Of a stretch of DNA of 64,000 nucleotides, positions 1-64,000 are shown one piece after another. Below the pieces are notes generated by a model. The model searched no databases and was not told the origin of the DNA. It saw only the letters and a program-made list of their open reading frames with translations. Within the stretch, counting starts at the first letter, position 1. The number at the start of each line of letters is the position of its first letter. This stretch comes from Culicoidibacter larvae (GTDB lineage: Bacteria; Bacillota_I; Bacilli_A; Culicoidibacterales; Culicoidibacteraceae), in the NCBI RefSeq assembly GCF_005771635.1, contig NZ_VBWP01000010.1:38962-102961 (forward strand), read 5' to 3'. The translations under genes and the position numbers were made by a program.

Positions 1-1194
1 ACCTTCTTGAGTTGGTCACAAACACAAGGTGGGACGGCATGGAATTTTACTAATGATAAAATGCCGGCAAGCAACTTGAACTTATATGCGCAATTTTCTG
101 CTGACAATCAAACAATTACATTTGATGTTAATGGCGGCGATGTGGCAACTGAGCCGGCTGATATTGTACAGCCAACAGATTCAAGTGTTACTATCAGTGC
201 AGTGCCAAGTTATGCGGGTTATACTTTCGTTGGCTGGTTTGATAGCAGCAATGTGCAACATAGCGGAACCTTTGCAATGCCAAATGGCGGGTTGGATTTA
301 GTAGCGCATTGGACAGCGGCTAATCAAGTGATTAGTTTTGATGCTGCCGGTGGTAGTGGCGTGGATTCAATTGTTGAACCGACCGGAGCCAGTGTTGATA
401 TTGATTCTGCGGTGACGACTCGTGCCGGGTACCAATTTGATGGTTGGTATAATGGTGCGACTCAGGTTGATGGAATTATCACTATGCCTGTAGGCGGAAT
501 GCAGTTAACAGCACATTGGACAGCGTTAGACCAAACAATCACCTTTGATGTCAATGGTGGTTTATCAAGTTCAAAACCAGATGATATTATTGCGCCGACA
601 GATTCAATTGTTGATATTGATGCGGTTACTGAACCGCAACGCCCGGGATATCGCTTCTTGGGTTGGTATAACAATGATGAATTGGTATTTGGCAGTATTA
701 ATATGCCGGCAGGCGGGATGACATTAAAAGCAGCATGGAAAGATTTAATTGCTGATGGGGTTTGGAAGATTAATGGTGATCATATTACGATGACGGTTTC
801 GGAAGTTGATGGCTATATGGCTAATGGAACATTAGGCCAGGAAGTATTGGCGAAGAGCAATGCTAAAGCCTGGGATGATGAAACCGGTGAAATTTTAACG
901 CCGCTTGATATTGATTGTTCAAGTGTGGTTGCAGTTGTTGGTGATTATCATGCGCCGGTAACTTATACGCCTGGAACAAGTTCTGCGGCAGCGGCTGTAT
1001 CGGTGTTTGGTGCGGAAGATGCTGAGGAGAATACTGATGTCAATACGCTTTCGGGAACGGTAGCAGTTACAGTTATTGATGATCCGGTTTCAAAATTACC
1101 GGTGACTGGACAGGAACCGTTGATGATGGCCGGAGCTGGCGGGGTACTGATTGGTTTGAGTAGTGTCTTCTTAGTTAAAAAGAAAAGAAAATAG
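1..1194 (+). CDS. Giant LPXTG adhesin with InlB-type repeats, 3' end only
   Basis: The reading frame is open from base 1, so this is the C-terminal part (about 397 codons) of a larger surface protein whose start lies outside the window. It holds the tail of one InlB/Listeria-Bacteroides repeat and three full ones, recognised by G-Y-x-F-x-G-W-[FY] and a closing A-x-W. A roughly 115-residue domain follows (about 745-1092), then LPVTG, a hydrophobic helix and a KKKRK tail, the standard sortase sorting signal. It should be covalently attached to peptidoglycan. It is paralogous to the proteins at 4331 and 60489. The ligand is unknown. Confidence 0.92.
   Translation, partial: TFLSWSQTQGGTAWNFTNDKMPASNLNLYAQFSADNQTITFDVNGGDVATEPADIVQPTDSSVTISAVPSYAGYTFVGWFDSSNVQHSGTFAMPNGGLDLVAHWTAANQVISFDAAGGSGVDSIVEPTGASVDIDSAVTTRAGYQFDGWYNGATQVDGIITMPVGGMQLTAHWTALDQTITFDVNGGLSSSKPDDIIAPTDSIVDIDAVTEPQRPGYRFLGWYNNDELVFGSINMPAGGMTLKAAWKDLIADGVWKINGDHITMTVSEVDGYMANGTLGQEVLAKSNAKAWDDETGEILTPLDIDCSSVVAVVGDYHAPVTYTPGTSSAAAAVSVFGAEDAEENTDVNTLSGTVAVTVIDDPVSKLPVTGQEPLMMAGAGGVLIGLSSVFLVKKKRK
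103..741 (+). repeat. Three InlB-type repeats in the adhesin stalk
   Basis: Three consecutive protein repeats of about 70 residues, each with a G-Y-x-F-x-G-W core and a [MT]-x-L-x-A-x-W end. They are diverged at the DNA level, so recent recombination is not obvious. They resemble the last repeats of the 4331 protein. Confidence 0.8.
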
Positions 1195-4134: not shown

Positions 4135-4222
4135 GTTTGCCAAAAATCGTTTTTTTATGAGCACAATAATAATAACTGGAGAGAATATACAAAAATTACA
4201 CAAAAAGAACACAGACTTTTCG

Positions 4223-4250
4223 TTGAACCAAATGGCACGTGTTCTATAAT
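4223..4250 (+). promoter_or_regulatory. Promoter of the 1853-residue adhesin
   Basis: TTGAAC (4223-4228), 16-nt spacer, TATAAT (4245-4250). Downstream lie two AGGACA direct repeats 20 nt apart (4274-4279, 4294-4299) and the GGGAGGG ribosome site (4316-4322). Confidence 0.65.
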
Positions 4251-4330: not shown

Positions 4331-7300
4331 ATGAGTAAAAAAATTGGAAAACTAATTATTGTATCATTAGCAGCATTGCTCTTGGTACTTACGCAAATGG
4401 ACTTAAGCGTTTTAGCACAAAGTGACGAAGTGACGCAAGAGTCATCACAAAATAATACAGGGGAAAACGAGGCGGCTGATGCAGCTGAGGCTGACCAGCT
4501 GCAAAGTGAACCAGCAGCTGAAGCCGAAGCGCCAAAAACAAGTGTTCAGGGAGGACGGCAACTGTTAGGAGATGCACCAACAACGCAAAATGCATTTGCA
4601 GTATATGACGGACAAGATTTGGCAACCAATGCTGACTTTAGTTATGCACCTAAAGACGCGTACACACCGGCACGAACTTTAAGTATTGCTACTTCATTTC
4701 CAGACCGTGCAACAGTAACCGGAGCTAAGATAGAAATTAAACTTAATAATGTGTTACAACTGGCTGGAGCACCTGGGATGGTTGCAGACGGTACAAATGG
4801 CTGGAAGTTTGATCTCGATAAATTAGTAAATGACTATCCGCAACAGGCTGGGAAAATCAGCAATGCAATTTACACGCCAGAAAAAGTGAATGGCTGGTTA
4901 ACAGGAAAAGGAACATTAACCTATGAAAAAAACCCCGGAACTAATGAGGTTTATTTAGAACTAACCTTAAAATTGAATGTGACTTATTCGGTGCGTTTGT
5001 TTAACGGACCAACTGAGACTTTTGCTAATGTAGCGGATATTAGTTCGAGCTATACTGAAAATGGAATGGATCATGAAATTGAGAGCAGTAAAATTAATAA
5101 TGTTACTGTGACTAATGCTCAAAATATCTGGATTAGTATGTATCAAGGTGGGACAATGTATCGTTCAATCGGAGATGATGTTACCGTGGGGACATCACTT
5201 AATCCATATGTAAATACTGATTCATATAGTGCAGGTCTAACTAATGTAGTTGTTAATGAATTGACCTACACTGTGAAAATAAATAAGTTGCTTAACTTGA
5301 CGGGAGTACGAACATCATCAGGAACACTTTCTTATACATTAACAGATGATCCTAGTGATGCAATTTACCAGTATATAACTTATACTGTTTCAAATTTTAA
5401 AGTTGCATCTACACTATATTTTGATTTCAAACTTCCGGATAATATTGCAACCGGAAATTATCAAGTCTTTTCAATTGGTTCTTATGCTGGGTTTACAAAT
5501 TCAATCACAAGAGTTGATGGTTCAGTTGAAACTTCAGGGATAGTGCACTCATATGGTAGTACAGCAGTCATTTCTGTAAGTGATCCAAATGTGGCATCGG
5601 AATTAGAACTGGATACATCTAATCAAACTTTAGCTTTTCAAGACTTTGATGCCAGTATGAATTTGCTTGGTAATATGCAAGTGAAAAATACTAGTGCTAA
5701 CGTGATTACTAATCGTTCCGGAAAGTTAGATTTTAGTGCTTATAGCAGTAAATATGGCGTTGAACAAGTTAGTCTTACGATACCAAACGGTATGCAAGTT
5801 AAGAATGTCGTTGCCAAGACAAATTTGAATAATACGTATTCGATTGCAACAGTTACTGGAACAGCAGGTGGAGCCGGTCAATATGTAAATATTAGTAAAT
5901 CGGTATTGGGAATAACAACAGATGCTGAGTATATAACAGAATTGACTTGGGATTATGCTGGTTCCTTTCCTAGCGGATGGGTTAGCGGCGGTACAAGTTC
6001 AAGGTTAGACTACTTCCAAGTTTCCACGATTCGTTATTATGGAAAAATTTTAGATATGCCTGCTGATCGAAAATATAATGCGACATTAACAGTCTTTGAA
6101 ACTGGGAATGTCTCAAATTCTCAAACCAAAACTCAAGCTATTACGGTTAATGATAACTCAATTTCTATGGGCTCAACTGTGGGATTAACTGGAAATTTAG
6201 TAACAACACAAAGTAGCGGCAGCATTTATTCGGCATCTTCAACGGTTGATTTTACTAACTATCGCTATAGTAATGATATGATGCGTACCTTAAAAGGGAT
6301 TGCTTTTTATCTACGTGATACTGATTATACAATAGTTAATCCAGATACATTAAAAGTCACCTGGAATGGAAATACCTATCAAACCAGTGATGGAAGTTTG
6401 ACTGCAATTGAAGGTGTTGATAATTCTAATCATAAATTCTATAAATTAGAATTACCAGATGTTATTTTAGGTATGGGGAATACAGAAACGGCCAGCACTA
6501 TATATCCAAATGCAACTGTGACTTATGATTTTAAAATTAAGCCGTCAGCGCCGACAACTGCGTTAATGGTTCAAGATATCATTTCAGTTACCCCGCTTGA
6601 TCAATCAATCAGAGTAACTAATGGTGGTTGGTACAGTGTGTACCTTACTACTGATAAATATAATGTAACCGGACAGGCTAATTCAAATATCCCACTTGGT
6701 TCTTACCGTCAAGGCTATGCTTTCAATATTACTGCTAAAAAAGCATTTTTAGTTACAACGGCAGCTAATCTTGATGATGGCCCATGGGTGAGCTATGATT
6801 ATGATACTAATCAATCAATCATTGATCTGAATCCAAGCGGTGATGCTAAGTATCAATTGGCGGTAACAAATAATTCAGGACAAACAATTAATGGTTACAC
6901 TGCACTTGTGCCGATTCCAAAGTATGGTGAAAAAACAGACTTAACACCAGCCACACCTGGAGAGTGGAATCCAAGCTATCATTTGCAAAAAGAAGCTTTT
7001 GGCTGGACAACAGCATTATTAGAAGAAATTAACACTTCTGCAACAGCTCTCGATTATCAGGTCCTTTATGCAACAACATATGAGACTAGTATCTCTTCAC
7101 CAAATTTTGTCACATGGGATACTATTACAAATAAAGATAATATTCGCATGGTAAAAATATTTACAACTGATGCAATTCCTGATGGGACATTAGATGTTAT
7201 TGATTTTCCATTGGCATTAACCGATCCATTAGCTGATGCTCATGCTGGCAATATGAATATTTATTCAGCACGTGTATATAGCAGTATTGATGGTAGTGCC

Positions 7301-9892
7301 GGATATAAACCAAGTGAGCCAATTGCAATTCGCTTAAAAACTGGTATCGTGACTGGTATCGTCTTCAATGATGATAACCGCAATGGATTGCAGGATGCTG
7401 GTGAAATTGGACGCAACGGAGTTTCCGTTATTGCCTATGAAGCGGGAACAACAAATCAATTAGCAACCGCAACAACTCAAACACACGATGGTATCGCCGG
7501 AGTCTATAAATTTATGGGCTTAGATAAAAATCAAAATGTTGATATTGTATTTGGTAATCCAAACACTGATGATTCAACTCGTTTCAGTCCAGTTACTAGT
7601 GGTGGTTCAACACCAACAGAAGCTGCCGATCATTTAAAAGCGACAACTGCAAACATTACGCCTAGTACTACTATCTCGACGACAATCAATGCCGGATTAA
7701 TTACCCCAACCGAAGTTACTATGGATGCTCAGGGTGGTGAAACTGCCGATAATGTAATTAAGCGTTACCCGGGAGAAACCATTGCAAGTGAACCTGCAGT
7801 TACTAGAGAAGGCTATACGTTTAATGGTTGGTTTACAGCAAGCACCGGTGGAACATTAGTAACCTTCCCGTACACAGTGGGAGTTCAAGATACAACATTA
7901 TATGCACAATACACAGTAAATCAATACACATTGAGCTATGATGTTGCAACCAATGGTGGCGAAAGTGGTGTTCCGGCAACACAAACAATTAACTACGGTA
8001 CAAAAGCAACAAAACCAGCTGATGCAACCAAAACCGGCTATACATTTAATGGTTGGTTTACGGCAGCAAGCGGCGGCACAGCATGGGATTTCAACACGAC
8101 AACAATGCCAGCTGCCAATACAACTTTGTATGCGCAGTTCAGTATCAATACATATACGACTACTTTTAATATCGATGGAGTTGTAATAACGACTGATGTT
8201 GTTTATGGCAATAAAGTAGTTGAACCGGCAACTCCAAGTAAAGAAGGTTATACTTTCTTAGGTTGGTATACTGTCGCTACTGGCGGAACTCAGTGGAATT
8301 TCTCTACTGGAACAATGCCGGCAAATAACATGACACTTTATGCACAGTACTCAGTTAATTCATACACACTGAGCTTTGATATTGCAACCAATGGTGGCAG
8401 CGGAACCGCGCCAACTAATCAAACGGTTAACTACGGAACCAAAGCAACTAAACCTACTGATCCAAGCAAAACCGGATATAGTTTTGCCGGTTGGTTTGAT
8501 GCCTCAACCGGTGGTAATGCTTGGGACTTTAGTACCAAAACTATGCCAGCGAATGATGTGACGTTGTATGCGCAATTCGGTGTTGATCAATACACAGTGA
8601 GCTTTAATAATGAAGGCACAATAACAACGGAAACAGTGGCGTATGGTGCGTTAGTACCGAAGCCAGTGGACCCAAGTAAATTGGGCTACACATTCAATGG
8701 CTGGTTTGATGCTGAAACTGGTGGTAACGAGTGGAACTTCAGTAGTGACACGATGCCAGCGAATTATCTGAATCTCTATGTCCAATATAGCGCCAATACA
8801 TATACATTGAGTTTTGATGCGAAAGACGGAAGTACAGTACCGGCGATTAGCGCCGCTACTGATACACCAATTGATATTGATGCCCAAGTTACAACGAAAG
8901 ATGGCTACACTTTCTTAGGATGGTATGATAGCAATAACACGCAAGTAAGTGGAACAATCAATATGTATCCATACAACGCAACCTTAACTGCGAAATGGCA
9001 AGGGATTGATCAAACAATCCACTTAGATGTGAATGATGGTGATGCAACAAGTGTACCAGCAGCGATTGTAAAACCGACCGGAGACAGTGTGAATCTTGAA
9101 ACGGTTGTACCAACCAGAGCCGGATATAGTTTTATTGGTTGGTTTGATGCAAGCGATGTGCAACATAGCGGAACATTTGTGATGCCGGTAGGCGGTCTAC
9201 AGCTGAAAGCGAAGTGGACAGCAGTTAATCAAGTGATTACTTTCAATACTTATGGCGGCAGTGGTGTAGATTCAATTGTGGCACCAACTGACAGTACCGT
9301 AGACATCAGCAGTGTAACAACAGAACAATGGAGTTATGGCTTCCTTGGCTGGTTTGACGAAAATGGAACACAATACAGCGGAACATTTGCGATGCCAGCA
9401 GGCGGATTACAACTGCAAGCGAAATGGCAAGATTATATTGCTGATGGCACTTGGATAATTTCAGCTAATGATTTCAAAATGACTTTTGCTGAGCTACAAG
9501 CAAAAATTGCTGATGGTACAATAGTAGATAGTATTATCATTAAGTCTGATGCGCGTGCAATTGATAAGTTGACAAACAGTGACTTAGGACCACTGCAAGT
9601 ATTGAATATTAGCGAATTAACAAGCGCACCTAAAGCTGGTACATATCAAATGACAATTGCTTACACTAATCCGTCAGCAACTGTCAGCACTTATGACTTG
9701 TATACAACTAATGAACGAGTTTTAAGTACGACAATTAATGTTGAAGTAACTGCTGAGAATACAAACAGCAGCTCAACAAATGGATTGCCACAGAGTGGGC
9801 AAAATATTACTTTTGCTGCTTTGATTGGAATCATCTTAGTTGTTGTTGCAGGAATATTACTTGTATTCAGCCGCTCTAAAAAGCGTTTGTAA
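4331..9892 (+). CDS. Giant LPXTG adhesin (1853 residues)
   Basis: A complete sortase-anchored surface protein. Order: signal peptide (1-29), an acidic/Ala-rich segment, about 900 residues of beta-rich repeating modules of no family I recognise, one SdrD/Cna-B-like domain near 1003-1090 (D-D-N-R-N-G-L-Q-D-A-G-E, a calcium-loop-like motif), eight InlB-type repeats near 1128-1700, a C-terminal domain near 1703-1815, then LPQSG (about 1819), a hydrophobic helix and a basic tail. LPQSG deviates from LPXTG by T to S, which a sortase may or may not tolerate. GGGAGGG precedes the ATG. The regulator-kinase-accessory cassette follows directly. The N-terminus is clearly homologous to the 60489 protein. 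Confidence 0.93.
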   Translation: MSKKIGKLIIVSLAALLLVLTQMDLSVLAQSDEVTQESSQNNTGENEAADAAEADQLQSEPAAEAEAPKTSVQGGRQLLGDAPTTQNAFAVYDGQDLATNADFSYAPKDAYTPARTLSIATSFPDRATVTGAKIEIKLNNVLQLAGAPGMVADGTNGWKFDLDKLVNDYPQQAGKISNAIYTPEKVNGWLTGKGTLTYEKNPGTNEVYLELTLKLNVTYSVRLFNGPTETFANVADISSSYTENGMDHEIESSKINNVTVTNAQNIWISMYQGGTMYRSIGDDVTVGTSLNPYVNTDSYSAGLTNVVVNELTYTVKINKLLNLTGVRTSSGTLSYTLTDDPSDAIYQYITYTVSNFKVASTLYFDFKLPDNIATGNYQVFSIGSYAGFTNSITRVDGSVETSGIVHSYGSTAVISVSDPNVASELELDTSNQTLAFQDFDASMNLLGNMQVKNTSANVITNRSGKLDFSAYSSKYGVEQVSLTIPNGMQVKNVVAKTNLNNTYSIATVTGTAGGAGQYVNISKSVLGITTDAEYITELTWDYAGSFPSGWVSGGTSSRLDYFQVSTIRYYGKILDMPADRKYNATLTVFETGNVSNSQTKTQAITVNDNSISMGSTVGLTGNLVTTQSSGSIYSASSTVDFTNYRYSNDMMRTLKGIAFYLRDTDYTIVNPDTLKVTWNGNTYQTSDGSLTAIEGVDNSNHKFYKLELPDVILGMGNTETASTIYPNATVTYDFKIKPSAPTTALMVQDIISVTPLDQSIRVTNGGWYSVYLTTDKYNVTGQANSNIPLGSYRQGYAFNITAKKAFLVTTAANLDDGPWVSYDYDTNQSIIDLNPSGDAKYQLAVTNNSGQTINGYTALVPIPKYGEKTDLTPATPGEWNPSYHLQKEAFGWTTALLEEINTSATALDYQVLYATTYETSISSPNFVTWDTITNKDNIRMVKIFTTDAIPDGTLDVIDFPLALTDPLADAHAGNMNIYSARVYSSIDGSAGYKPSEPIAIRLKTGIVTGIVFNDDNRNGLQDAGEIGRNGVSVIAYEAGTTNQLATATTQTHDGIAGVYKFMGLDKNQNVDIVFGNPNTDDSTRFSPVTSGGSTPTEAADHLKATTANITPSTTISTTINAGLITPTEVTMDAQGGETADNVIKRYPGETIASEPAVTREGYTFNGWFTASTGGTLVTFPYTVGVQDTTLYAQYTVNQYTLSYDVATNGGESGVPATQTINYGTKATKPADATKTGYTFNGWFTAASGGTAWDFNTTTMPAANTTLYAQFSINTYTTTFNIDGVVITTDVVYGNKVVEPATPSKEGYTFLGWYTVATGGTQWNFSTGTMPANNMTLYAQYSVNSYTLSFDIATNGGSGTAPTNQTVNYGTKATKPTDPSKTGYSFAGWFDASTGGNAWDFSTKTMPANDVTLYAQFGVDQYTVSFNNEGTITTETVAYGALVPKPVDPSKLGYTFNGWFDAETGGNEWNFSSDTMPANYLNLYVQYSANTYTLSFDAKDGSTVPAISAATDTPIDIDAQVTTKDGYTFLGWYDSNNTQVSGTINMYPYNATLTAKWQGIDQTIHLDVNDGDATSVPAAIVKPTGDSVNLETVVPTRAGYSFIGWFDASDVQHSGTFVMPVGGLQLKAKWTAVNQVITFNTYGGSGVDSIVAPTDSTVDISSVTTEQWSYGFLGWFDENGTQYSGTFAMPAGGLQLQAKWQDYIADGTWIISANDFKMTFAELQAKIADGTIVDSIIIKSDARAIDKLTNSDLGPLQVLNISELTSAPKAGTYQMTIAYTNPSATVSTYDLYTTNERVLSTTINVEVTAENTNSSSTNGLPQSGQNITFAALIGIILVVVAGILLVFSRSKKRL
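7710..9432 (+). repeat. Eight InlB-type repeats
   Basis: Eight protein repeats of about 65-75 residues with G-Y-[TS]-F-x-G-W-[FY] cores. The first five have T-G-G-x-x-W-[DN]-F extensions. The last three are of the Q-x-S-G-T-[FI]-x-M type seen in the partial adhesin at the window start. Confidence 0.85.
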
Positions 9893-9961: not shown

Positions 9962-9990
9962 TTGACAATTGTTTATGGCCACTCTAAAAT
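9962..9990 (+). promoter_or_regulatory. Strong promoter of the first regulator cassette
   Basis: TTGACA (9962-9967), 17-nt spacer, TAAAAT (9985-9990). Near-consensus sigma-A promoter 35 nt before the regulator start. Confidence 0.75.
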
Positions 9991-10024: not shown

Positions 10025-10702
10025 ATGAAAAAAATATTATTTGTTGATGATGATGCTAAATATCAAATGCTGATAAAGGAATTACTTGAGCTTGATGGTT
10101 ATGAGGTTCTAACAGCAAGCAATGCCATGGATGGCGTTGAAATATATAAAAACACTGATGATATCGATTTAGTTATTAGTGATTTAAAGATGCAAACAAT
10201 TGATGGGTTGCAGCTACTTAGCATTATCAGAAAGTATAATAATCAGGCGAAAGTCATTATTTTGACTGGCTCTGATAATCCTCATGATGAATTGCTAGGG
10301 CTAGATTTACGAGCAAATGAATATCTGAAAAAGTCAATTGACATCTCGGTATTACTTAAAAGAATTCAATTAGTTCTTGAACAAACTGTTGAGATCAGCG
10401 GCCAAAATATTCTGACCAGCAATTTTGAGAATATTGTTGTTGATAAACAAAATTATAAAGTTCAAAAAAATGACATTTATTATGAATTAACTAAGACTGA
10501 GTTTGCTTTGTTAGTTTATTTTTTGGAGCATAAAAATGAAGTGCTGAACCGCGAAGACATACTCAAGGAAGTCTGGCGTATTTCAAATACTTTTGGTGAT
10601 GATCGTGCTGTTGATACCTATGTAAAAAAACTGCGTTCAAAATTACGGATTTCAAGTATTTATACTGTTCGCGGTGTTGGTTATGAATGGGTTGAACGAT
10701 AA
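10025..10702 (+). CDS. OmpR-family response regulator (cassette 1)
   Basis: A 225-residue regulator. The receiver domain has the acidic pair D8-D10, phospho-acceptor D53, T81 and K102. A C-terminal winged helix carries V-D-T-Y-V-K-K-L-R. The start is the ATG at 10025, after a GGGGGGG run (10012-10018). An upstream in-frame extension to 9962 would run through the promoter. The stop overlaps the kinase ATG by one base (TAATG), so the two are translationally coupled. It is paralogous to the regulator at 57642. It probably controls surface-protein genes; this is inferred from position. Confidence 0.93.
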   Translation: MKKILFVDDDAKYQMLIKELLELDGYEVLTASNAMDGVEIYKNTDDIDLVISDLKMQTIDGLQLLSIIRKYNNQAKVIILTGSDNPHDELLGLDLRANEYLKKSIDISVLLKRIQLVLEQTVEISGQNILTSNFENIVVDKQNYKVQKNDIYYELTKTEFALLVYFLEHKNEVLNREDILKEVWRISNTFGDDRAVDTYVKKLRSKLRISSIYTVRGVGYEWVER

Positions 10703-12105
10703 TGAATAATAAAAAAACAAGGAGACTATTTTATGTTTTGGCAATCGGTTATTTTGCAATCGTTGTTTTTTTAGTGTTCCTTATCTATCAGATGCCATTA
10801 ATATATACCAATTTAAATACCCAGCATATTGAGAGCACTAAAACCGAGATTCAGACGGCAATTAATACTAAGACCGGGGAGGATTTGGCGACAAATCTTG
10901 CCCGTATTCAAGAACAAAATAATATGGAGTTAGTAGTGGTGACGCCGGAGGCGATTGTTTATTCCTCAATGCCTACTGCTGATTTTGCGATGCTAACAGA
11001 AATTTTTGATGGCCAAAACTTAAGCTACGAGGGTGCAAAATTATTTCAGGCAGAAGATGGCACCAGTTATCAAGTGTGGGTTGCTTTCTATAAAGTTGAT
11101 TCCGAAGCCTTTTTTGCTAACATGCTGATTATCATGGTTATTAGTGTTGTTATTTTAACGATAATTATCGGTCTGCTTTTATTGGTTATCTTCCGCCAGT
11201 CAATTAAGCCATTGACACGATTACGTGATAACATCAATAAATTACGTGCTTATCGTTTGAAAGAATTACGTGGAGTAAATAATAGTGATGCTGATTATGA
11301 TTTATTATCAAAGGCACTTGGCGAATTTACCGACGATTTGCAAGGGAAATTCGACACCATTGGTACAGAATATACGCTTTTGGAACAGCAGTTACAGGAA
11401 AAACAGGAGCTTTATCAAACAAAAATGCAGATGGTCCAGTCTTTAGTACATGATACTAAGGCACCAATCAGTATGGAATTGTTTTCGATTAAGCAGTTGA
11501 AAGAGGCACTTGGAGAATATCCTGAGCTTATCGCCAAACTAGATGGTATGCAACAAAATAACGAGGAACTTATGGCTGAAATTATCGATATGATGCATAT
11601 TATTAAGGATAAAGAGAGCGAGATGATTTTGGAGAAAGAAATTGTTGACCTGGCGGAAGTCGTCCGCTCAACAATCCGTCGTTTTGATGCAGCTATCCAG
11701 GAAAAGAATCTTTTTTACTCAATAGATATGCCGCAAAAACTGCCAATACTCGTCAATAAAATTCAAATCAAGCAATTACTTTTCAATATCATTTCCAACG
11801 TTTGCCAATATACTGAAATTGATGGCGAATTTGAATTGGTGCTTTATGATGAAGATGAGCAGCTGCATATTATTGCTGCAAATGAGGTGCAGGATACTTC
11901 AAAGATTGATTTTGGTAAAGTGTTTGAACTCTTTTATCTACCGGAAGCAAATGACAATAATACGGCGACCGGTATTGGTATGTATACCATCAAGCACATG
12001 GTTGATATTTATAACGGTACGGCACGTTTTGAACCAAGCGAGAGTGGAGTTGTGCTGACAATTACTATTCCTAACCCAAAGGAACCGGGTGATAGCCATG
12101 CGTAA
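10702..12105 (+). CDS. Membrane sensor histidine kinase (cassette 1)
   Basis: A 467-residue kinase. TM1 spans about 11-33, an extracytoplasmic sensor of about 105 residues follows, and TM2 spans about 141-164. Then come a HAMP-like linker, a coiled coil (about 205-245), a phospho-acceptor box with H250 in H-D-T-K-A-P, an N box (N-I-I-S-N) and a C-terminal T-G-I-G-M glycine motif. The usual D-x-G-x-G ATP motif is not visible; the region reads A-N-E-V-Q-D-T. The 58294 kinase shares this feature. It is coupled to the regulator upstream and overlaps the accessory gene downstream. The sensor domain is of no family I recognise. Confidence 0.9.
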   Translation: MNNKKTRRLFYVLAIGYFAIVVFLVFLIYQMPLIYTNLNTQHIESTKTEIQTAINTKTGEDLATNLARIQEQNNMELVVVTPEAIVYSSMPTADFAMLTEIFDGQNLSYEGAKLFQAEDGTSYQVWVAFYKVDSEAFFANMLIIMVISVVILTIIIGLLLLVIFRQSIKPLTRLRDNINKLRAYRLKELRGVNNSDADYDLLSKALGEFTDDLQGKFDTIGTEYTLLEQQLQEKQELYQTKMQMVQSLVHDTKAPISMELFSIKQLKEALGEYPELIAKLDGMQQNNEELMAEIIDMMHIIKDKESEMILEKEIVDLAEVVRSTIRRFDAAIQEKNLFYSIDMPQKLPILVNKIQIKQLLFNIISNVCQYTEIDGEFELVLYDEDEQLHIIAANEVQDTSKIDFGKVFELFYLPEANDNNTATGIGMYTIKHMVDIYNGTARFEPSESGVVLTITIPNPKEPGDSHA

Positions 12106-12811
12106 GAAGTTATTAGCAATACTTTGCCTTGTTCCGCTTCTTCTGTTCTTGCAGAACCTGCCGGTTCATGCAACAATCCCGACTTCGCGAGCCGAGGCCA
12201 GCGAAGCGGCGATGGCAGCGCTGGAGAAAATTGAAGACCGCGCCGGCACTTACGAAGTCAAGCTTGTTTATGAACAGAACGGCCGGACGATAACTGAGAC
12301 AGTATTGATGACGATAACGGCCGCGAATACGGTTATCCAAGAACCAATTGCAATTGATGCGCAAAATGTTATTGTTGCGTTGGCGGATGTATCGCAAATG
12401 AGCGCTACTGACTGGATAACTTTAGCTCAAGCCCATGCATGGAACACACAGACGTTGGCAGACTTGAATGTTCAGGCAGATACCAGCAGCATTCAGAACA
12501 AGGTTGGTGTCTACCCGATTACTTTTGTAACTGATAATGGTGTTGCCACTACAATTCAAGCTGAAGTGCAGGATCTGACTGCGAGTGGTGAGAACGCGGC
12601 GGTTATTTACCAAGCTAATATGAAAAATGGCTGGCATGAAACCAGCTATCAGGAAAATAAATTTATGTGGGCCAACTTCGGTAACTGGTTTGATATTACC
12701 ATTAGCGGCGTGTTGTTGCTGGGATTTGCGATTCCAATTACTATTTTAATTATTGAATATGTTGTAACAAAGCAAATTATTCAGAAGCTTATTGATGTGT
12801 TGGGGAAATAG
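12098..12811 (+). CDS. Membrane-anchored accessory protein of cassette 1
   Basis: A 237-residue protein overlapping the kinase by 8 bases. It has a signal peptide (about 1-26), an extracytoplasmic part with two beta-rich segments each ending in a G-[TV]-Y-x-[IV] strand, and one C-terminal membrane helix (about 200-226) with a short cytoplasmic tail. A GTG at 12089 is an alternative start. The segment from about 12328 to 12573 resembles the domain just before the sorting signal of the adhesins (I-D-A-Q-N-V, A-H-A-W, G-V-Y-P-I-T-F). It is paralogous to the gene at 59676. A role as co-sensor or chaperone for adhesins is inferred. Confidence 0.85.
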   Translation: MRKKLLAILCLVPLLLFLQNLPVHATIPTSRAEASEAAMAALEKIEDRAGTYEVKLVYEQNGRTITETVLMTITAANTVIQEPIAIDAQNVIVALADVSQMSATDWITLAQAHAWNTQTLADLNVQADTSSIQNKVGVYPITFVTDNGVATTIQAEVQDLTASGENAAVIYQANMKNGWHETSYQENKFMWANFGNWFDITISGVLLLGFAIPITILIIEYVVTKQIIQKLIDVLGK

Positions 12812-12842
12812 AAAAACGGCCGCCTTTAGGGCGGCCGTTTTT
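12812..12842 (+). terminator. Strong intrinsic terminator
   Basis: AAAAACGGCCGCC (12812-12824) pairs perfectly with GGCGGCCGTTTTT (12830-12842). It ends cassette 1. Confidence 0.92.
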
Positions 12843-28684: not shown

Positions 28685-28805
28685 GTATGTTTGAATGGCA
28701 AACTGTTCCCGGTGAGAGAATAGATTGCCATTTTATTTTTTGGTACGTTAGCGACGGCAATTATTATTTTATGTGATATTATTAAGGGGTAATGGAGGAA
28801 TAGTT

Positions 28806-57641: not shown

Positions 57642-58310
57642 ATGAAACGAATATTATTTGTTGATGACGATGATTTTTATCGTGATGTTTTTGCTGACTT
57701 ACTTTTGAATGAAGGCTATGCTGTTGATGCTGTGAAAAGTGCAGCGGAGGGTATAGTCCTTTTTAAAAAGAGTCCATATGATTTGGTACTGAGTGATTTG
57801 AAAATGGATACGATTGACGGTTCGCAGTTGTTAACCATCATTCGTAAGTATGATCAACGTACCAGAATTGTTATTTTGACTGGTTCTGATGATGAACAAG
57901 ATGAACTGCGTTGTTTGGATTTATTTGCTAATGAGTATTTGAAAAAATCAACGCCAATTAATATTTTGCTAAAACGAATCGAAATCGCTATGAGTAGTGA
58001 TACGATTGTGCCGGTGAAAAATTTATATAGTCGTGCAGAAAATATTGAGATTGAGAATAAAAATAAGCGAATTACCAAAAATGGTGAATCGATTGTATTG
58101 ACACAGAAAGAATTTGATTTATTGACGTTTTTCTTGAGCAATAAAAACCGGTTGTTGACCCGTGAAGAAATTTTGCAATCAGTTTGGCGGGCTGATGTTG
58201 GATTTTTTGATACCAGAACAGTAGATACTTATGTAAAAAAATTGCGAGCAAAATTACAGATATCAAGCATTGCTTCGATTCGAGGTGCAGGCTATGAATG
58301 GCTTGAATAA
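57642..58310 (+). CDS. OmpR-family response regulator (cassette 2)
   Basis: A 222-residue paralog of the 10025 regulator. Receiver: D8-D10, phospho-acceptor D52 (in S-D-L-K-M), T80, K101. The shared stretch after the acceptor (I-D-G-x-Q-L-L-x-I-I-R-K-Y) and the winged helix (V-D-T-Y-V-K-K-L-R) are almost the same as in cassette 1, so the two may bind related sites. The start follows a GGGGGG run. The kinase begins inside its 3' end. Confidence 0.93.
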   Translation: MKRILFVDDDDFYRDVFADLLLNEGYAVDAVKSAAEGIVLFKKSPYDLVLSDLKMDTIDGSQLLTIIRKYDQRTRIVILTGSDDEQDELRCLDLFANEYLKKSTPINILLKRIEIAMSSDTIVPVKNLYSRAENIEIENKNKRITKNGESIVLTQKEFDLLTFFLSNKNRLLTREEILQSVWRADVGFFDTRTVDTYVKKLRAKLQISSIASIRGAGYEWLE

Positions 58311-59679
58311 GCAACGAAGTCGTTTTATCTTTTTTGCTGTTGTTGCGGTTTATATTGTCTTAATTATTTTGTTAAATGTTTTTCTGTTGAATATTCCAGG
58401 GATTTATCAGAGTACTGCTGAGGACCGAGCGGCAACGGTCAAAACGGATATTCTGGCGGTTTTGCAGGGTTCGAATCCTGATAAGTCTGTGGCATTTGAC
58501 GCATTGCGGGAAGAGTATAAATTTGAGTTGGTGGTGTTGAGCGGTGATACGACAATCTATTCAACGATGCCAATTGATGATTTTAACAAGCTTGATGGAA
58601 TTATTGATAGTGAAGCTCTGAACTATCAAGAGCGCGATAGTTATGTTTTCAACGGCACTGATTATCAAGTGTGGATGGCTATTTATAAATATAGTTCGCA
58701 GTCATTTTTTGAATTGATTTTATATATTGTTATTGGGAGTGTAGTCATTTTAAGTGGATTGATTATCGTCCTTATTTTTGTTATGTTCAGGAGTTTGATT
58801 TCGCCGTTGCAGCGGTTGCGGGATAATATTTTTAAGCTGAAGGAATATCGTTTGAGTGAAGTTGCTGCCGGTAATGCAGAAAGTGAGTATGATAGTATTT
58901 CCGAGGAGCTGAGTCATTTTTCGGCCGATTTAGAAGGTAAAATCACTACATTTGGCGTGCAATACAGTCAGCTAGAGCGCGAACTAAAAAGTAAGCATGA
59001 ACAATACAAGGATAAAATTAACTTGGTACGGGCTTTGATTCATGATATTAAATCTCCGCTTTCAATTGAGCAGATGCAGATTGATCAATTGAAAATCGAC
59101 TTGCGGGATGATGAACAACAATTGCACCGGGTAGAGTTGTTGCAAAAGAGTGTCGATAAAATCATGAATGAGATGGTTGATGTTTTAAAGATTCTTGATA
59201 TCAATGCAACCCAAATGACTAAACAGGAAGTTGATTTGGTAGCTACATCCAAGGAGTTGTTGCGAATTTTCTTACCGGTATTTCAGGAACAGGGTGTAAC
59301 TTATGAATTGATTGCCCCACCAAAAATGATAATAAAAATAAATGCTATTGAGTTAAAACAGATTATTCATAATATTTTGTCAAATGCGGCGCAGTATACC
59401 AAACCGGGCGGTATCTTTGAGTTGGATCTTTATGAAGATAACGGGCAAGTACACATCACTGCCTATAATGATGTTGCTGATACTAAGGCAATTGACTTTG
59501 AGCGGGTTTTTGATCTGTTCTATTATGCCAACAATCAAGATAATTATTCAACTGGAATCGGGATGTTTACAATTAAAAATATGGTTGAGGCTAATGGTGG
59601 AACTTGTTCGTTTGCCGAATATCAAGATGGTGTGCGGTTGCATATCACTCTGCCGTTAGTGGTGGAGGGGATAGCATGA
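58294..59679 (+). CDS. Membrane sensor histidine kinase (cassette 2)
   Basis: A 461-residue paralog of the 10702 kinase. TM1 about 11-33, sensor about 35-138, TM2 about 141-165, coiled coil, H250 in H-D-I-K-S-P, N box (N-I-L-S-N), and T-G-I-G-M near the end. The sensor keeps I-Y-S-T-M-P, D-F-N-K-L and T-D-Y-Q-V-W, aligned with cassette 1. Here too the D-x-G-x-G motif is missing (Y-N-D-V-A-D-T). ATG 58294 is chosen over TTG 58270. It overlaps the accessory gene in ATGA fashion. Confidence 0.9.
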   Translation: MNGLNKQRSRFIFFAVVAVYIVLIILLNVFLLNIPGIYQSTAEDRAATVKTDILAVLQGSNPDKSVAFDALREEYKFELVVLSGDTTIYSTMPIDDFNKLDGIIDSEALNYQERDSYVFNGTDYQVWMAIYKYSSQSFFELILYIVIGSVVILSGLIIVLIFVMFRSLISPLQRLRDNIFKLKEYRLSEVAAGNAESEYDSISEELSHFSADLEGKITTFGVQYSQLERELKSKHEQYKDKINLVRALIHDIKSPLSIEQMQIDQLKIDLRDDEQQLHRVELLQKSVDKIMNEMVDVLKILDINATQMTKQEVDLVATSKELLRIFLPVFQEQGVTYELIAPPKMIIKINAIELKQIIHNILSNAAQYTKPGGIFELDLYEDNGQVHITAYNDVADTKAIDFERVFDLFYYANNQDNYSTGIGMFTIKNMVEANGGTCSFAEYQDGVRLHITLPLVVEGIA

Positions 59680-60386
59680 AACGATTAAGAGTTTGTTTTG
59701 CGGTTCTGTTTTGTTTGGTGTTCTCAGTGAGTAACCTGATTTTGGTTCAAGCTCAAGCGTTGCCGAAAAGCGAGCAAGAAGCGATGCTTGAGGAATTGCA
59801 CCGGCTTTACAGCGAAGGCAAAGATGCCGGCACATATTCAGTGACGATTGAATACGAAGAAAATGGCCAGACAATTAATAAAGAAGTACGGATAACGGTG
59901 ACGAAGGACGACACCGTCATCCAAGGCAATATTGCGATAAACGCCGAGCCAATTTCAATCAGCCCAGAACAAGTTGCTGATGCAACTGACGCGTTTTGGA
60001 TTAGCAGCGCCAATGCCAAGGCTTGGCGCACTACAACGCTGGAAGAACTGCCAATCATCAGCGTTGATGCCAGCCAAATTCAAAATCGTGAAGGTCAATA
60101 CTTGCTGACCTTTACAACGGTTGATGCAGTGGCAACATCGGTGGCAGTTACTGTTATTGGTAATAATGAGATTTTTGCTGTCGACGGCGAGTCCGGACAA
60201 GCAAGCGTCTTTCATGACACTTATACCGATAATGCTTTTGATTTTATGAGTGCTAGTTCATGGTTTTGGTTAGCACTTAATACCTTATTGGCAGGCCTCA
60301 TTGTAGTGCCGCTTATTTTACTGTTGATTCATTATGGCATTACCAATAAAATTTATCGTCAAGTAGTGAGTCTTTTGAAAAAATAA
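59676..60386 (+). CDS. Membrane-anchored accessory protein of cassette 2
   Basis: A 236-residue paralog of the 12098 protein. Signal peptide (about 1-27), two beta-rich segments, then a C-terminal membrane helix (about 195-222) with a basic tail. The ATG overlaps the kinase stop and follows GGTGGAGGGG. The segment 59914-60161 contains A-N-A-K-A-W and G-Q-Y-L-L-T-F; the partial adhesin has S-N-A-K-A-W and G-D-Y before its sorting signal. No terminator separates it from the adhesin at 60489. Function inferred only. Confidence 0.85.
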   Translation: MKRLRVCFAVLFCLVFSVSNLILVQAQALPKSEQEAMLEELHRLYSEGKDAGTYSVTIEYEENGQTINKEVRITVTKDDTVIQGNIAINAEPISISPEQVADATDAFWISSANAKAWRTTTLEELPIISVDASQIQNREGQYLLTFTTVDAVATSVAVTVIGNNEIFAVDGESGQASVFHDTYTDNAFDFMSASSWFWLALNTLLAGLIVVPLILLLIHYGITNKIYRQVVSLLKK

Positions 60387-60488
60387 TATACACAAATTTC
60401 ATAAATGTCCACTATACGTTGATTGTTTATGATGAGATCAAATAGGATAATTATATTGTAAAAATATATATTTAGGGGGAAAATTCCT

Positions 60489-63400
60489 ATGAAAAAAATA
60501 GTTAAAATTATTACAAGTATGCTGCTTGCAGCAATTGTAGCGATGCAGGCTGACTTATCAGTCTTTGCATTTAGCAATAACAATCAAGCGAGCGAAACTA
60601 ATACAGTGAGCGAAGAAAATACGAGTGCTCAGGATCCGGTAAGTGATGAAAATCTTGATGCGGATGTTGAGGCTGAGTCGGAAACGGATCAACCGACTGT
60701 GTTTTCGAAAATTTCTTCATTCTCGATTGGCTTTGCCAGTTTTGATGGTGTTGATTTAAGTGGAAATACTTCGATTTCAAAAGAATTAGGAGTTATTGCC
60801 GGAACTCCGTCTGAGTTTAATATTCAAGCGAGCTTTAGTGGTGATACTGATGTTAATAATCGAAAAATTGTTATTGCTATTAATGACAGTTTAACTTTAG
60901 CTGGTGCTCCAGGATTAACAGGTAGCGGAGCGACTTGGACATTTAATGAGTCGTTACTACCAACAGATTTACAGGGAAGAATCATTGGTGCCGAATTTAT
61001 TTCAAATGGTACGGTTTATGGCCAACAAATTGGCAGTGGTGTGTTAACATATGATGTTGCACCAGGAGTTACTAATATACTAGTCCCAGTAAAGATAAAA
61101 TTTGACTTACCATTTGCAGTGTTCACTGGAAGTCGAGATTTTGCTGATGTATTGAGTGTAAAAACTACGCAGGATGTTAACAGTGTTACTACTATAGTTG
61201 ACGAAGAAACACTTGAGAACTTTACTATTACTGATACAGTGGGAATGGGTGCGCGATTATATTCTGCAGCTACAAGTATTTATGGTGAGCCAGGGAAACT
61301 AGTCACTATTACTTATGATTTCCGCGGCGGGTTTAATACTTACTCTGATAACGGTGGCTATTTGTTTGAAGAACAGACCTATAAGTTTTACATTGATAAA
61401 AGAGCTGGAGTTGAATCGGTTGATTTCTCATTGCCTAATGGAACCGGTACATATAGTATTGACTCAACCACTAATGCAACAAAAGATATTTTATATATTA
61501 CTTTAAAAGAAATTGCTGCAAATGGTACACCAAAAGTAACAATAAAGTTTACTCCTACAGTTGCTGCACAACCTGGTGATAGTTACTTAATATCAGCAAA
61601 TGCAGCTGATAGTGTTACAAAACCCTATAAGTCAAATGTTATTACAACTAATATTCGCAATGGAGTTGCTTCGCAATACCGTTTAAATATTGCGAGTCCT
61701 TTTGAAAATAAAATTGCTGTGTATAATAATTCTGTAAATGTTGCACAAGCAAACTATATGGAATCAAGTATTGAAGGAATTAATTTTATTGGTGCAATTG
61801 ATCTAAGAAATCCGCAAAGTCAAAAAGTTACTAATCAATTAGTTAGATTTACTTTTGACAGTCCTGATATAGGTGTGAAAGCAGTTGACTTACCAAGTAG
61901 TTTAAATGTTGATGTTAAAAACGTTGTAGTAAAAACAAATAAAGGAAATACCTTTACTATTGATTCTGCTGCTGTGTCGCCAGGATATGGTGGTACTGGA
62001 ACTGCCCGATACCGTTTAAACTTGAAGGCGCTTGGAGTAACTGATGCAGATGAATATATTACTGAGGTAACTTACTTAGTTCAAGAACTAACTGCCTCAT
62101 ATGCTACTATATATAGTAATCTGGGTGGTATTGACTCAGGAATTTATGGTACTGTGCTTTCAATGCCAACATCAAAATCTTGGTCTTTTCAAATAGCTAC
62201 TGTTCCGTTGAACGATGGTGACTTTGATGGGGCAAATGCTAAGACAGCTATTTCAACAACTAAGTTTACAGATTTACCAATTGTTTTCGCAAATAATCAA
62301 ACGATTCCGGCAAATAATTTAGCTGGAAATTCTTCGACAATAAAGGGTACATTTTCTTTAAGAGGGTGGTCTACAACTAATATTAACAAGTTTAAAGGGT
62401 TTGAGTTCTATTTACGTGAAGGCGCCTACCTTAATATTGACGTAAATAGCATTAAGATAACAAATAAAGGGAAAATTTATTCTGTAGCTGATGGAACATT
62501 GGTTCCAATTCAATCAGTTGATAATACTGGAAATAAAGTCATTAAGATAGTCTTAAATGATTTACCACTTGGTTGGGTTTCTGCCGATTTTAATACTGAA
62601 ACAGCAGTTGTTAGCTATGATGTAAAAATCAAAAACACTGCACCATCAACTTCCATTCCGGCAAATGAATTAATGTATGTACAAGCGATTGATACGACAA
62701 TTTTGCGTGAAACTGGAGGAAGTACGACGGCTGCTACAAATAATCCAAATAAGTTTAATGTAGACGGTAGCGGAGATATTAATAAAATTATGGGGACGAT
62801 GAGCAGTATGCAGTCACTGCAAATTACGGCACAAAAAGACTTCACTGTAACAACCGCAGCTAACTTGAATAATGGACCATGGACAAGTTACGATTATAGT
62901 CTGCAGCAAACCGTTATTGATTTAAACCCTGAGGGTGATGCTAAGTATCAAGTAAATGTTGCTAATAATTCAGGGAGTAGTGCAGATGGTTATACAGTAT
63001 TAATTCCAATTCCTAAAGCGGGAGAGGCAACCGATATGAAGCCGGTAAATGTATCAGATTTTAATAAGAATCTTCATTTGCAAGTGAATGATTTTACTTG
63101 GACAGCTTCCATTGATACAGAAATTCAACCAACTGGTTCACTAAACTATACAGTTCTTTATGCGACGACTTATGCAACTGATAAAGACTCGGCAGCCTTT
63201 GTCCCTTGGAGCGTAATTACTAATAAAGATGATATTCGTATGATAAAAATTGTGACTGACAGTATCATCCCGGATGGATTCAACGAAGCGTTTAGTTTTC
63301 CATTGTTATTAAGTGATCCAGATGCTGATTTACATGCAGGTTTAACTAATATTTATGCTAGTCGAATTTACACTGTATTAAAAAATAGCGCTGGTGAAAT

Positions 63401-64000
63401 AACCTCAGCTGGATATAAAAACAGTGAGCCAATCGCAATTCGCTTAAAAACCGGTGTGGTAAAAGGACAAGTGTTCAATGATACTAATCGAAATGGTTTG
63501 AAAGATGTTGGAGAAACTGGGCGTAATGGCGTGACAGTCGTTGCCCTGGAAGCGGGGACAACAACTGTCATCGAAACAACGACGACTAAAACAATAGATG
63601 GTGTCGATGGCAGCTATGCCTTCTTAGGATTAGATAAAGCACAAAATGTAGATATTGTCTTTACGAACCCAGTTACTGATGACACAATTCGTTTTAGCCC
63701 GGTAACAAGTGGTGGTAGTACACCTACGGCGACTGCCATTCATGATAAAGCAACAACATCAAACTTAACTCCTAGTGCAATCGGCTTTGATACTATCAAT
63801 GCCGGATTGATTGCCCCAGTAACAGTGAGTATGAATGCTGGAACTGGTGGCAGCACTGCAACGGCAACATATACTCGCTTCCCAGGAGAAGCGATCACAA
63901 CTGAACCAGAAGCAGTAAAAACCGGACATACATTTAATGGCTGGTTTACCGCAAGTACTGGCGGAAGTAAAGTAACCTTCCCATATACAGTAGGAGCAGC
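60489..64000 (+). CDS. Giant adhesin, 5' part, running off the window
   Basis: At least 1170 codons, open to the end. A signal peptide (about 1-31) and an acidic linker lead into an N-terminal region homologous to that of the 4331 adhesin (L-T-L-A-G-A-P-G against L-Q-L-A-G-A-P-G). An SdrD-like domain near 988-1070 (F-N-D-T-N-R-N-G-L-K-D-V-G-E) and the first InlB-type repeat (G-H-T-F-N-G-W-F) follow in the same order. A sorting signal is expected beyond the window. A GGGGG run (60475-60479) precedes the ATG. Confidence 0.92.
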   Translation, partial: MKKIVKIITSMLLAAIVAMQADLSVFAFSNNNQASETNTVSEENTSAQDPVSDENLDADVEAESETDQPTVFSKISSFSIGFASFDGVDLSGNTSISKELGVIAGTPSEFNIQASFSGDTDVNNRKIVIAINDSLTLAGAPGLTGSGATWTFNESLLPTDLQGRIIGAEFISNGTVYGQQIGSGVLTYDVAPGVTNILVPVKIKFDLPFAVFTGSRDFADVLSVKTTQDVNSVTTIVDEETLENFTITDTVGMGARLYSAATSIYGEPGKLVTITYDFRGGFNTYSDNGGYLFEEQTYKFYIDKRAGVESVDFSLPNGTGTYSIDSTTNATKDILYITLKEIAANGTPKVTIKFTPTVAAQPGDSYLISANAADSVTKPYKSNVITTNIRNGVASQYRLNIASPFENKIAVYNNSVNVAQANYMESSIEGINFIGAIDLRNPQSQKVTNQLVRFTFDSPDIGVKAVDLPSSLNVDVKNVVVKTNKGNTFTIDSAAVSPGYGGTGTARYRLNLKALGVTDADEYITEVTYLVQELTASYATIYSNLGGIDSGIYGTVLSMPTSKSWSFQIATVPLNDGDFDGANAKTAISTTKFTDLPIVFANNQTIPANNLAGNSSTIKGTFSLRGWSTTNINKFKGFEFYLREGAYLNIDVNSIKITNKGKIYSVADGTLVPIQSVDNTGNKVIKIVLNDLPLGWVSADFNTETAVVSYDVKIKNTAPSTSIPANELMYVQAIDTTILRETGGSTTAATNNPNKFNVDGSGDINKIMGTMSSMQSLQITAQKDFTVTTAANLNNGPWTSYDYSLQQTVIDLNPEGDAKYQVNVANNSGSSADGYTVLIPIPKAGEATDMKPVNVSDFNKNLHLQVNDFTWTASIDTEIQPTGSLNYTVLYATTYATDKDSAAFVPWSVITNKDDIRMIKIVTDSIIPDGFNEAFSFPLLLSDPDADLHAGLTNIYASRIYTVLKNSAGEITSAGYKNSEPIAIRLKTGVVKGQVFNDTNRNGLKDVGETGRNGVTVVALEAGTTTVIETTTTKTIDGVDGSYAFLGLDKAQNVDIVFTNPVTDDTIRFSPVTSGGSTPTATAIHDKATTSNLTPSAIGFDTINAGLIAPVTVSMNAGTGGSTATATYTRFPGEAITTEPEAVKTGHTFNGWFTASTGGSKVTFPYTVGA

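What the first reader, a model, noticed from the sequence alone, without database searches (positions are those of the whole stretch)
10025..12811. Duplicated regulator-kinase-accessory cassette tied to giant adhesins
Seen: two three-gene sets (10025-12811 and 57642-60386) with the same order, the same overlapping junctions, a phospho-His at residue 250 in both kinases, and a secreted one-helix third protein. Each lies next to a giant adhesin with the same N-terminal domains (4331 upstream of set 1; 60489 downstream of set 2). Inference: a dedicated sensing and control module for giant surface proteins, possibly with a self-monitoring third component. I know of no named system with this architecture.
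Basis: partly seen in the sequence, partly recalled or inferred. Interest (0 to 1): 0.85.

Follow-up and report, generated by a model that had tools for sequence, protein, structure and literature searches.

The report
Kinase cassette that mirrors its adhesin
Sixteen times over, this bacterium's genome places a regulator, a sensor kinase and a small membrane protein beside a gene for a surface protein, usually a giant adhesin, and in most readable cases the small protein's outer part is a relative of the domain at the adhesin's own base, so it likely lets the cell sense how much adhesin is waiting at the membrane and would adjust its production.

Summary
The genome carries 16 regulator-kinase-X cassettes, not two. 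In 15 of 16 a surface-protein gene starts 21-196 bp after X; window set 1 has its adhesin upstream. All 24 X genes whose neighbourhood was read (16 here, 1 in a second genus, 7 in Erysipelothrix) have the kinase beside them. X passes no Pfam or NCBIfam threshold. Its outer domain is homologous to adhesin repeats and to the last domain before the cell-wall anchor: in 4 of 12 cassette adhesins with readable ends by an X-only profile, in 9 of 12 after iteration. Adhesin upstream regions share a CACAAA-type repeat. Adhesin heads vary independently of the cassette within the main group, whereas adhesin bases track regulator and kinase. I conclude that this is a dedicated three-component control system, one per adhesin. 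X is predicted to touch the kinase through its membrane helix and tail and to report unanchored adhesin through its adhesin-like domain. Dedicated control is well supported by sequence; the read-out step is inferred, with mixed covariation results. My literature searches showed no description of it.

The parts
10025..10702 (+). RR1, OmpR/PhoB-type response regulator of set 1
   Evidence: Pfam Response_reg E 1.5e-23, Trans_reg_C E 3e-21
10702..12105 (+). HK1, sensor histidine kinase of set 1 (two membrane helices, about 100-residue outer sensor, His250)
   Evidence: HATPase_c; invariant H250/K253/P255 in 16 kinases; predicted structure, mean pLDDT 77
12098..12811 (+). X1, third protein of set 1: signal peptide, beta hairpin, adhesin-type Ig-like domain, one membrane helix with invariant Pro213, short inside tail
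   Evidence: no Pfam/NCBIfam hit at E 0.001
12347..12568 (+). adhesin-type domain (dom2) of X1
   Evidence: profile; fold
4331..9892 (+). A1, 1853-residue cell-wall-anchored adhesin upstream of set 1
   Evidence: pAdhesive_6, SdrD_B, Flg_new repeats; anchor match C10:48725-48841, 21.2 bits
9452..9694 (+). base domain of A1, homologous to X dom2, directly before the LPQSG anchor
   Evidence: not hit by the X-only profile; iterated profile E 2e-11, which by then contains adhesin copies
4189..4214 (+). CACAAA-type direct repeats, putative regulator box of A1
   Evidence: motif tests
4223..4250 (+). A1 promoter-like TTGAAC-16-TATAAT
   Evidence: consensus match; 3 such sites found, 2.4 expected
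9962..9990 (+). set 1 promoter-like TTGACA-17-TAAAAT, no clear repeat
   Evidence: 11 of 12 matches; 9 sites found in the region, 10.8 expected
12812..12842 (+). terminator-like hairpin directly after X1 (14 pairs)
   Evidence: 2 such sites found, 2.1 expected
57642..58310 (+). RR2, response regulator of set 2
58294..59679 (+). HK2, sensor kinase of set 2
59676..60386 (+). X2, third protein of set 2
59931..60155 (+). adhesin-type domain (dom2) of X2
60381..60407 (+). putative regulator box in front of A2 (overlaps the end of X2)
60489..63998 (+). A2, giant adhesin downstream of set 2, cut by the contig end
   Evidence: pAdhesive_6 E 6e-56
1..1194 (+). 3' end of the adhesin of a third cassette (regulator, kinase, X at L044 12871-15648); base domain at 763-1005

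Best explanation
A regulator, a kinase and a one-helix membrane protein (X) are encoded together 16 times in this genome, each time beside a gene for a surface protein, usually a giant adhesin, and the outer domain of X is homologous to the base domain of nine of the twelve of those proteins whose ends can be read; X is predicted to be a membrane-held stand-in for that base domain, through which the kinase would sense adhesin that has not yet been anchored and the regulator would then tune that one adhesin gene. Proposed order: (1) regulator, kinase and X are made from a constant promoter (inferred from promoter-like sites); (2) X joins the kinase through its membrane helix and inside tail (inferred from covariation); (3) the outer domain of X is left free, and a newly exported adhesin, still held by its own membrane helix, places its base domain at the same height as that of X, where the two related domains compete or pair (inferred); (4) the kinase changes state and the regulator acts at the CACAAA-type repeats just upstream of the adhesin promoter (repeats shown, binding inferred); (5) sortase anchoring removes the adhesin from the membrane and resets the signal (inferred). 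The sign of the feedback is not determined.
For: Linkage: 16 cassettes, 15 of 16 with a surface-protein gene 21-196 bp downstream, set 1 with it upstream; 12 of 13 pAdhesive_6 matches (the 12 above 150 bits) belong to cassette adhesins, the 13th (28 bits) lies at a contig end. X with the kinase: 24 of 24 read neighbourhoods. Same coupling with other adhesin heads: pAdhesive_6 was found in 1 of 395 class genomes, yet the G001 cassette and six of seven in Erysipelothrix sit beside a large protein; in G368 the only dom2-bearing frames are X and the neighbouring 2168-aa giant. Domain homology: dom2 of X matches the last pre-anchor domain in 4 (X-only profile) or 9 (iterated) of 12 readable cassette adhesins. 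Mosaic: adhesin base correlates with RR (r 0.52, p 0.009, n 8; r 0.64, p 0.002, n 7) and HK (0.41, 0.57); head and middle do not (RR r 0.08 and -0.03, n 11), although the head lies closer to the cassette. X tail versus kinase HAMP/signal helix r 0.82, dom2 versus kinase sensor r 0.05 (n 11). Box: with equal search effort, scores 67.2-69.5 and 81.8-92.4 against maxima of 59.4 and 71.6 in 20 shuffles; held-out test p 0.02 or less for 6 of 16.
Against: dom2 of X is not closest to its own adhesin's base (own rank 1 or 2 in only 4 of 9), and the dom2-base correlation depends on the distance used: r 0.51, p 0.015 by identity (n 9), r 0.09, p 0.44 by BLOSUM (n 8). Kinase sensor versus adhesin base is r -0.27. 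Over all 15 units adhesin heads do correlate with HK and RR (r 0.69 and 0.65), because three divergent units differ in everything. X tail also tracks the regulator (r 0.72), so shared history explains much; given the regulator, X tail versus kinase membrane/HAMP region is r 0.41 (p 0.002) in 11 units but -0.10 in 14. In 14 units dom2 correlates with every kinase part (r 0.47-0.65). The X of c16 has no dom2 (158 aa). Adhesins c12, c13 and c15 lack a recognised dom2 as last domain. Five dom2 proteins here have no cassette. The Erysipelothrix cassette L111 has no intact giant in the 19 kb read. The held-out box test gives p above 0.05 in 10 of 16; the exact genome-wide pattern was read from the sites it found. 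No correction for multiple tests.
Confidence: 0.43

Rival explanations
1. X is an ordinary kinase helper, working like SaeP/SaeQ: it sets the kinase/phosphatase balance and does not read the adhesin. It shares a domain with adhesins only because Ig-like modules are common building stock in this lineage.
For: X TM+tail covaries with the kinase; five dom2 proteins have no cassette; X of c16 lacks dom2; no cognate matching of dom2 to base.
Against: In G368 the only dom2-bearing frames are X and the neighbouring giant; dom2 sits directly before the anchor in 9 of 12 readable cassette adhesins; adhesin bases, not heads, track regulator and kinase in the main group.
Confidence: 0.3
2. X and the adhesin stalk bind the same outside ligand (wall polymer or host glycan) through related domains, and the kinase reports that ligand, so that the adhesin is made when its target is near.
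For: Related domains in X and adhesins; the fold resembles Ig-like domains of surface proteins such as InlK and Rib.
Against: The closest folds include many stalk-type domains; by their annotation the variable adhesin heads, not the base, would be the ligand binders.
Confidence: 0.12
3. X is an assembly or anchoring factor for the adhesin (a docking platform), and the kinase pair merely controls the set.
For: Related domains could pair during export (inference).
Against: X overlaps the kinase gene in both window sets, sits with the kinase in 24 of 24 read cases and covaries with it.
Confidence: 0.08
4. Hitchhiking: the cassette and adhesins are neighbours only because they were copied together; no functional link.
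For: Many paralogues in one genome.
Against: Order and orientation differ between lineages while adjacency stays; heads do not follow the cassette in the main group but the pairing persists; shared repeat upstream of adhesins.
Confidence: 0.05

Closest known systems
SaePQRS of Staphylococcus aureus
   Same: Two-component pair with membrane or secreted helper proteins encoded beside it; helpers act on the kinase (PMC5083920, passages read).
   Different: SaeP is a lipoprotein and SaeQ a four-helix protein; over 20 virulence factors controlled by one system. Here X is a one-helix protein related to the adjacent adhesin, one system per adhesin.
HtrA/CroRS response to membrane-retained pili in Enterococcus faecalis
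   Same: A two-component regulon is partly induced when sortase substrates stay on the membrane (PMC11326707, abstract and section list read).
   Different: There HtrA is a chaperone/protease and CroRS responds to membrane perturbation; the abstract mentions no dedicated cassette per substrate and no substrate-like third protein.
Cpx system with CpxP (recalled, no call)
   Same: Accessory outer protein thought to link misfolded pilus subunits to a kinase.
   Different: Gram-negative, periplasmic; no domain shared with its substrate as far as I recall.
Fibrillar adhesins (PMC8286594, search listing and start of abstract only)
   Same: A1 has adhesive head, stalk repeats and anchor.
   Different: The part seen describes adhesins, not a control cassette.

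Membership tests
OmpR/PhoB-type two-component system | receiver plus winged-helix regulator | tested here: met
   PF00072 and PF00486 above cut-off in RR1 and RR2
OmpR/PhoB-type two-component system | membrane kinase with HATPase_c and conserved phospho-His | tested here: met
   PF02518 above cut-off in HK1 and HK2; H250 invariant in 16 kinases
OmpR/PhoB-type two-component system | recognised HisKA dimerisation domain | tested here: inconclusive
   No Pfam HisKA hit at E 0.001, but H, K and P of the H-box are invariant
SaePQRS | helper is a lipoprotein (SaeP) or a four-helix protein (SaeQ) | tested here: not met
   X alignment has no conserved Cys and one C-terminal helix; no lipoprotein predictor was run
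Proteobacterial dedicated sortase system (TIGR03785) | kinase above the family cut-off | tested here: not met
   HK2 40 bits against cut-off 612.2; HK1 not listed
Sortase-anchored fibrillar adhesin (A1) | adhesive domain, stalk repeats and wall anchor | tested here: met
   pAdhesive_6, Flg_new repeats; PF00746 21.2 bits, cut-off 20; motif LPQSG
Rib/Ig-like stalk domain (X dom2) | sequence match to a curated domain family | tested here: not met
   X1 and X2: nothing over cut-off; best weak rows SH3_Hsr9 E 0.056, PDR_CDR 0.17, Filamin 0.18 (filters drop most matches above 0.1)
Rib/Ig-like stalk domain (X dom2) | fold match | tested here: inconclusive
Functional self-monitoring system | kinase output changes with amount of unanchored adhesin | not testable with these tools
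   needs experiment

The most novel reading that the evidence does not exclude
Molecular mimicry inside a signalling complex: X is a sortase-free copy of the adhesin's own base, a half Ig hairpin plus one full base-type domain on a membrane helix, locked to its kinase, so that each of 16 parallel circuits counts its own adhesin at the membrane before anchoring. This would be a substrate-mimic sensor, a way of sensing not described in the searches I ran, and it would let one cell run many independent adhesin thermostats whose binding heads can be swapped without rewiring.
Probability: 0.32. Interest if true: 0.87.

Novelty: new variant of a known kind. Interest (0 to 1): 0.72.

Why it matters
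How Gram-positive cells meter individual giant surface proteins before sortase anchoring is, to my knowledge, largely open. Here one genome devotes 16 kinase circuits to surface proteins one by one (15 of its 33 HATPase_c matches are cassette kinases; the sixteenth kinase was missed by that search), with a third component that resembles the adhesin base. That makes the question testable gene by gene. The same cassette occurs in Erysipelothrix, where in the passages I read of two genome papers the two-component systems were listed without this link.

Tried and rejected
X in plasmids or phages: X2 gave no match by tblastn, so no sign of a mobile element there. A genome-contig scan with three X proteins found nothing (own genome withheld); a second with three Erysipelothrix X gave one locus. 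A loose box pattern in the window occurs at chance level (3 found, 3.8 expected), so only the upstream-of-adhesin tests count. My first motif control gave the real set 80 restarts and the shuffles 25; repeated with equal effort and 20 shuffles it holds. A box upstream of the regulator was sought: scores are at or slightly above the shuffles (49.9-57.7 against a maximum of 53.5; 67.1-74.8 against 70.3), and the 17-base motif looks like ribosome-binding sites; I do not claim autoregulation. The promoter and terminator scans as a whole are mostly near chance in number (but 17 promoter-like sites against 10.8 and 2 terminator-like against 0.4). Cognate matching of X dom2 to its own adhesin base failed. 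A general link of pAdhesive_6 with two-component genes could not be tested because no other of 395 class genomes gave a match. Partial correlation X versus kinase sensor given regulator is near zero (0.08, n 14; 0.23, p 0.08, n 11). No fold family is excluded by its absence. The kinase model was read only for secondary structure. The protein database search scored only the 7992 candidates sharing most words and missed most of this genome's own X; the class and phylum searches scored at most 7 candidates per genome.
Full report
WHAT IS THERE. The window is C10:38962-102961 of a 2.5-Mb, 33-contig genome. Both reported sets exist as described, with small corrections: junction overlaps differ between the sets, HK2 needs the ATG at 58294 for its His to be residue 250, and the A1 anchor is LPQSG. 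Searching the own genome with X1, then with X1, HK1 and RR1 on the fetched stretches, gives 16 cassettes. The regulator is seen in 15 of 16; the sixteenth (c04) runs off a contig end inside its kinase. In 15 of 16, the next gene on the same strand is a surface-protein gene, 21-196 bp after X. These are not all intact giants: c11 is split into two frames (727 and 974 aa), c12 is 643 aa, c15 is 720 aa without a recognised anchor, and four (c02, c06, c09, c16) are cut or closed near contig ends. Window set 1 is the exception: its adhesin A1 lies upstream, and a terminator-like hairpin follows X1 directly.

DOES A1 BELONG TO SET 1? HK1, X1 and the A1 head all have their closest relatives in one and the same other unit, c04, which has the usual order (the c04 kinase is a 156-residue piece). 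So set 1 plus A1 looks like one rearranged unit. Erysipelothrix locus L110 also has an adhesin upstream of a cassette, with a 192-residue frame between them.

X RESEMBLES ADHESINS. A profile made only from X dom2 hits tandem repeats in four giant proteins (7-19 stretches each, weak ones included; one of them is the c13 adhesin), two in a fifth, and single copies just before the anchor in cassette adhesins c03, c08, c10 and c11 and in one contig-end fragment. After three iterations, when the profile also contains adhesin copies, the last folded domain before the anchor is recognised in c01, c03, c04, c05, c07, c08, c10, c11 and c14: 9 of the 12 cassette adhesins whose ends can be read. c13 has dom2 copies but a different last domain; in c12 and c15 none is recognised. 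A genome-wide count with a mixed model (E 1e-4) gives 15 X, 10 cassette adhesins, 4 short frames near contig ends and 5 other proteins (1469, 2335, 3584, 1330 and 901 aa).

OTHER GENOMES. Full-length X occurs in G001 (same family, other genus) and in four genomes of one genus of another family, seven cassettes in all there; one of the four is Erysipelothrix tonsillarum DSM 14972 by contig match. It was not seen elsewhere among 395 class and 392 phylum genomes (overlapping sets, at most 7 candidates scored per genome, E 1e-18); the other hits there cover mainly dom2. The kinase is adjacent to X in all eight, and the regulator too, though in L109 it is inverted. Six of the seven Erysipelothrix cassettes lie beside or within about 1.3 kb of a large protein: L108 convergent 910 aa without a recognised anchor, L109 2097 aa, L110 upstream 2256 aa read and divergent 1701 aa read, L112 divergent 1450 aa read, L113 divergent 1779 aa read. 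L111 does not, although two short frames with dom2 matches lie about 5 kb away, which may be a decayed gene. dom2-bearing frames in these genomes: G368, X and the neighbouring giant only; G356, X, the neighbouring giant and one 780-aa frame on another contig; G001, X, the neighbour and one 247-aa frame; G344, four X, three neighbouring giants and two others; G391, X, a 76-aa fragment and two others. A database search gave three external proteins (P0002, P0005, P0006), whose neighbours I did not see.

CO-INHERITANCE. Distances among units agree strongly between RR, HK and X (r 0.60-0.91, p 5e-5) but not with adhesin heads within the pAdhesive-type group (r -0.13 to 0.12, not significant, n 12); over all 15 units the heads do correlate with HK and RR (0.69, 0.65) and weakly with X (0.29, p 0.03), because three divergent units differ throughout. 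With a BLOSUM distance adhesin bases agree with RR (r 0.52, p 0.009, n 8) and HK (r 0.41, p 0.03); heads and middles do not (RR 0.08 and -0.03; HK 0.22, p 0.06, and 0.08; n 11). X versus base is r 0.29, p 0.19 (n 8) by BLOSUM and r 0.54, p 0.003 (n 9) by identity, so that link is uncertain; kinase sensor versus base is -0.27. In 11 units X tail versus kinase HAMP/signal helix is r 0.82 and X dom2 versus kinase sensor r 0.05, but X tail versus RR is already 0.72; given RR, tail versus kinase membrane/HAMP region is 0.41 (p 0.002, n 11) and -0.10 (n 14). In all 14 units dom2 correlates with each kinase part (r 0.47-0.65). Many comparisons were made and none is corrected for multiple testing.

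PROMOTERS. In the 200 nt before 16 adhesins a repeat of CACAAA type scores 67.2-69.5 (width 17) and 81.8-92.4 (width 22) over three seeds, against maxima of 59.4 and 71.6 in 20 shuffles given the same effort (first seen with unequal effort). In a leave-one-out test 6 of 16 reach p 0.02 or less in 389 kb of own-genome background; 10 of 16 are above 0.05, of which c03, c04, c14, c15 and c16 are above 0.15. The strict pattern CACAAWNNNWCACAAW occurs three times in the whole genome, each in an X-adhesin gap, against one for the reversed control, but it was read from those sites. At A1 the repeats lie 8 nt before a TTGAAC-16-TATAAT site. The regulator of set 1 has TTGACA-17-TAAAAT upstream. These are consensus matches, not measured promoters.

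LITERATURE. Searches for two-component systems with LPXTG adhesins and a third gene, Erysipelothrix two-component systems, accessory proteins with Ig-like domains, SaePQ and adhesive domains listed no paper that I recognised as describing this cassette. Two Erysipelothrix genome papers list two-component genes; in the passages I read (PMC4105556, PMC9637936) no third protein or adhesin link is mentioned. I did not read them whole.

VERDICT. A real, repeated and cross-family three-component system dedicated to surface proteins (I put this part near 0.85). That X couples to the kinase is likely (about 0.7). That X reports the adhesin base is the best single mechanism but rests on homology, position and partly conflicting covariation (about 0.4). 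After checking, confidence was lowered slightly because the X-only profile recognises 4, not 9, of the bases and the tail covariation is partly explained by shared history.

Noticed in passing
L105, L106, L107 (ORF 1219-2793 of L106): In 14 of 395 class genomes, all in the Erysipelothrix family, frames of 525-547 residues match the X profile over dom2. Three were read and the one scanned is a PotA-like ABC ATPase with TOBE_2 and a C-terminal extension that matches dom2 twice, odd for a protein expected inside the cell.
   Followed up: partly
L056 6282-6758: The X protein of cassette c16 has only 158 residues: hairpin and membrane helix without the adhesin-type domain.
   Followed up: partly
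L051 5743-10952: The adhesin of cassette c11 is in two frames: one with the pAdhesive head, a second with the anchor.
   Followed up: no
L111 1268-1646: Two short frames with adhesin-type domain matches near an Erysipelothrix cassette that has no intact giant in the stretch read: possibly a decayed adhesin.
   Followed up: no
window 15984-17890 (- strand): A two-component pair without an X gene lies 3 kb from set 1.
   Followed up: no
G000 C7, C10, C14, C20 near contig ends: Four short frames near contig ends carry the base domain, matching in number the four cassette adhesins whose ends are missing.
   Followed up: partly
window 1364-3814, 28773-30431, 51231-53927: Three further proteins with anchor motifs and no cassette; no dom2 match.
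   Followed up: no
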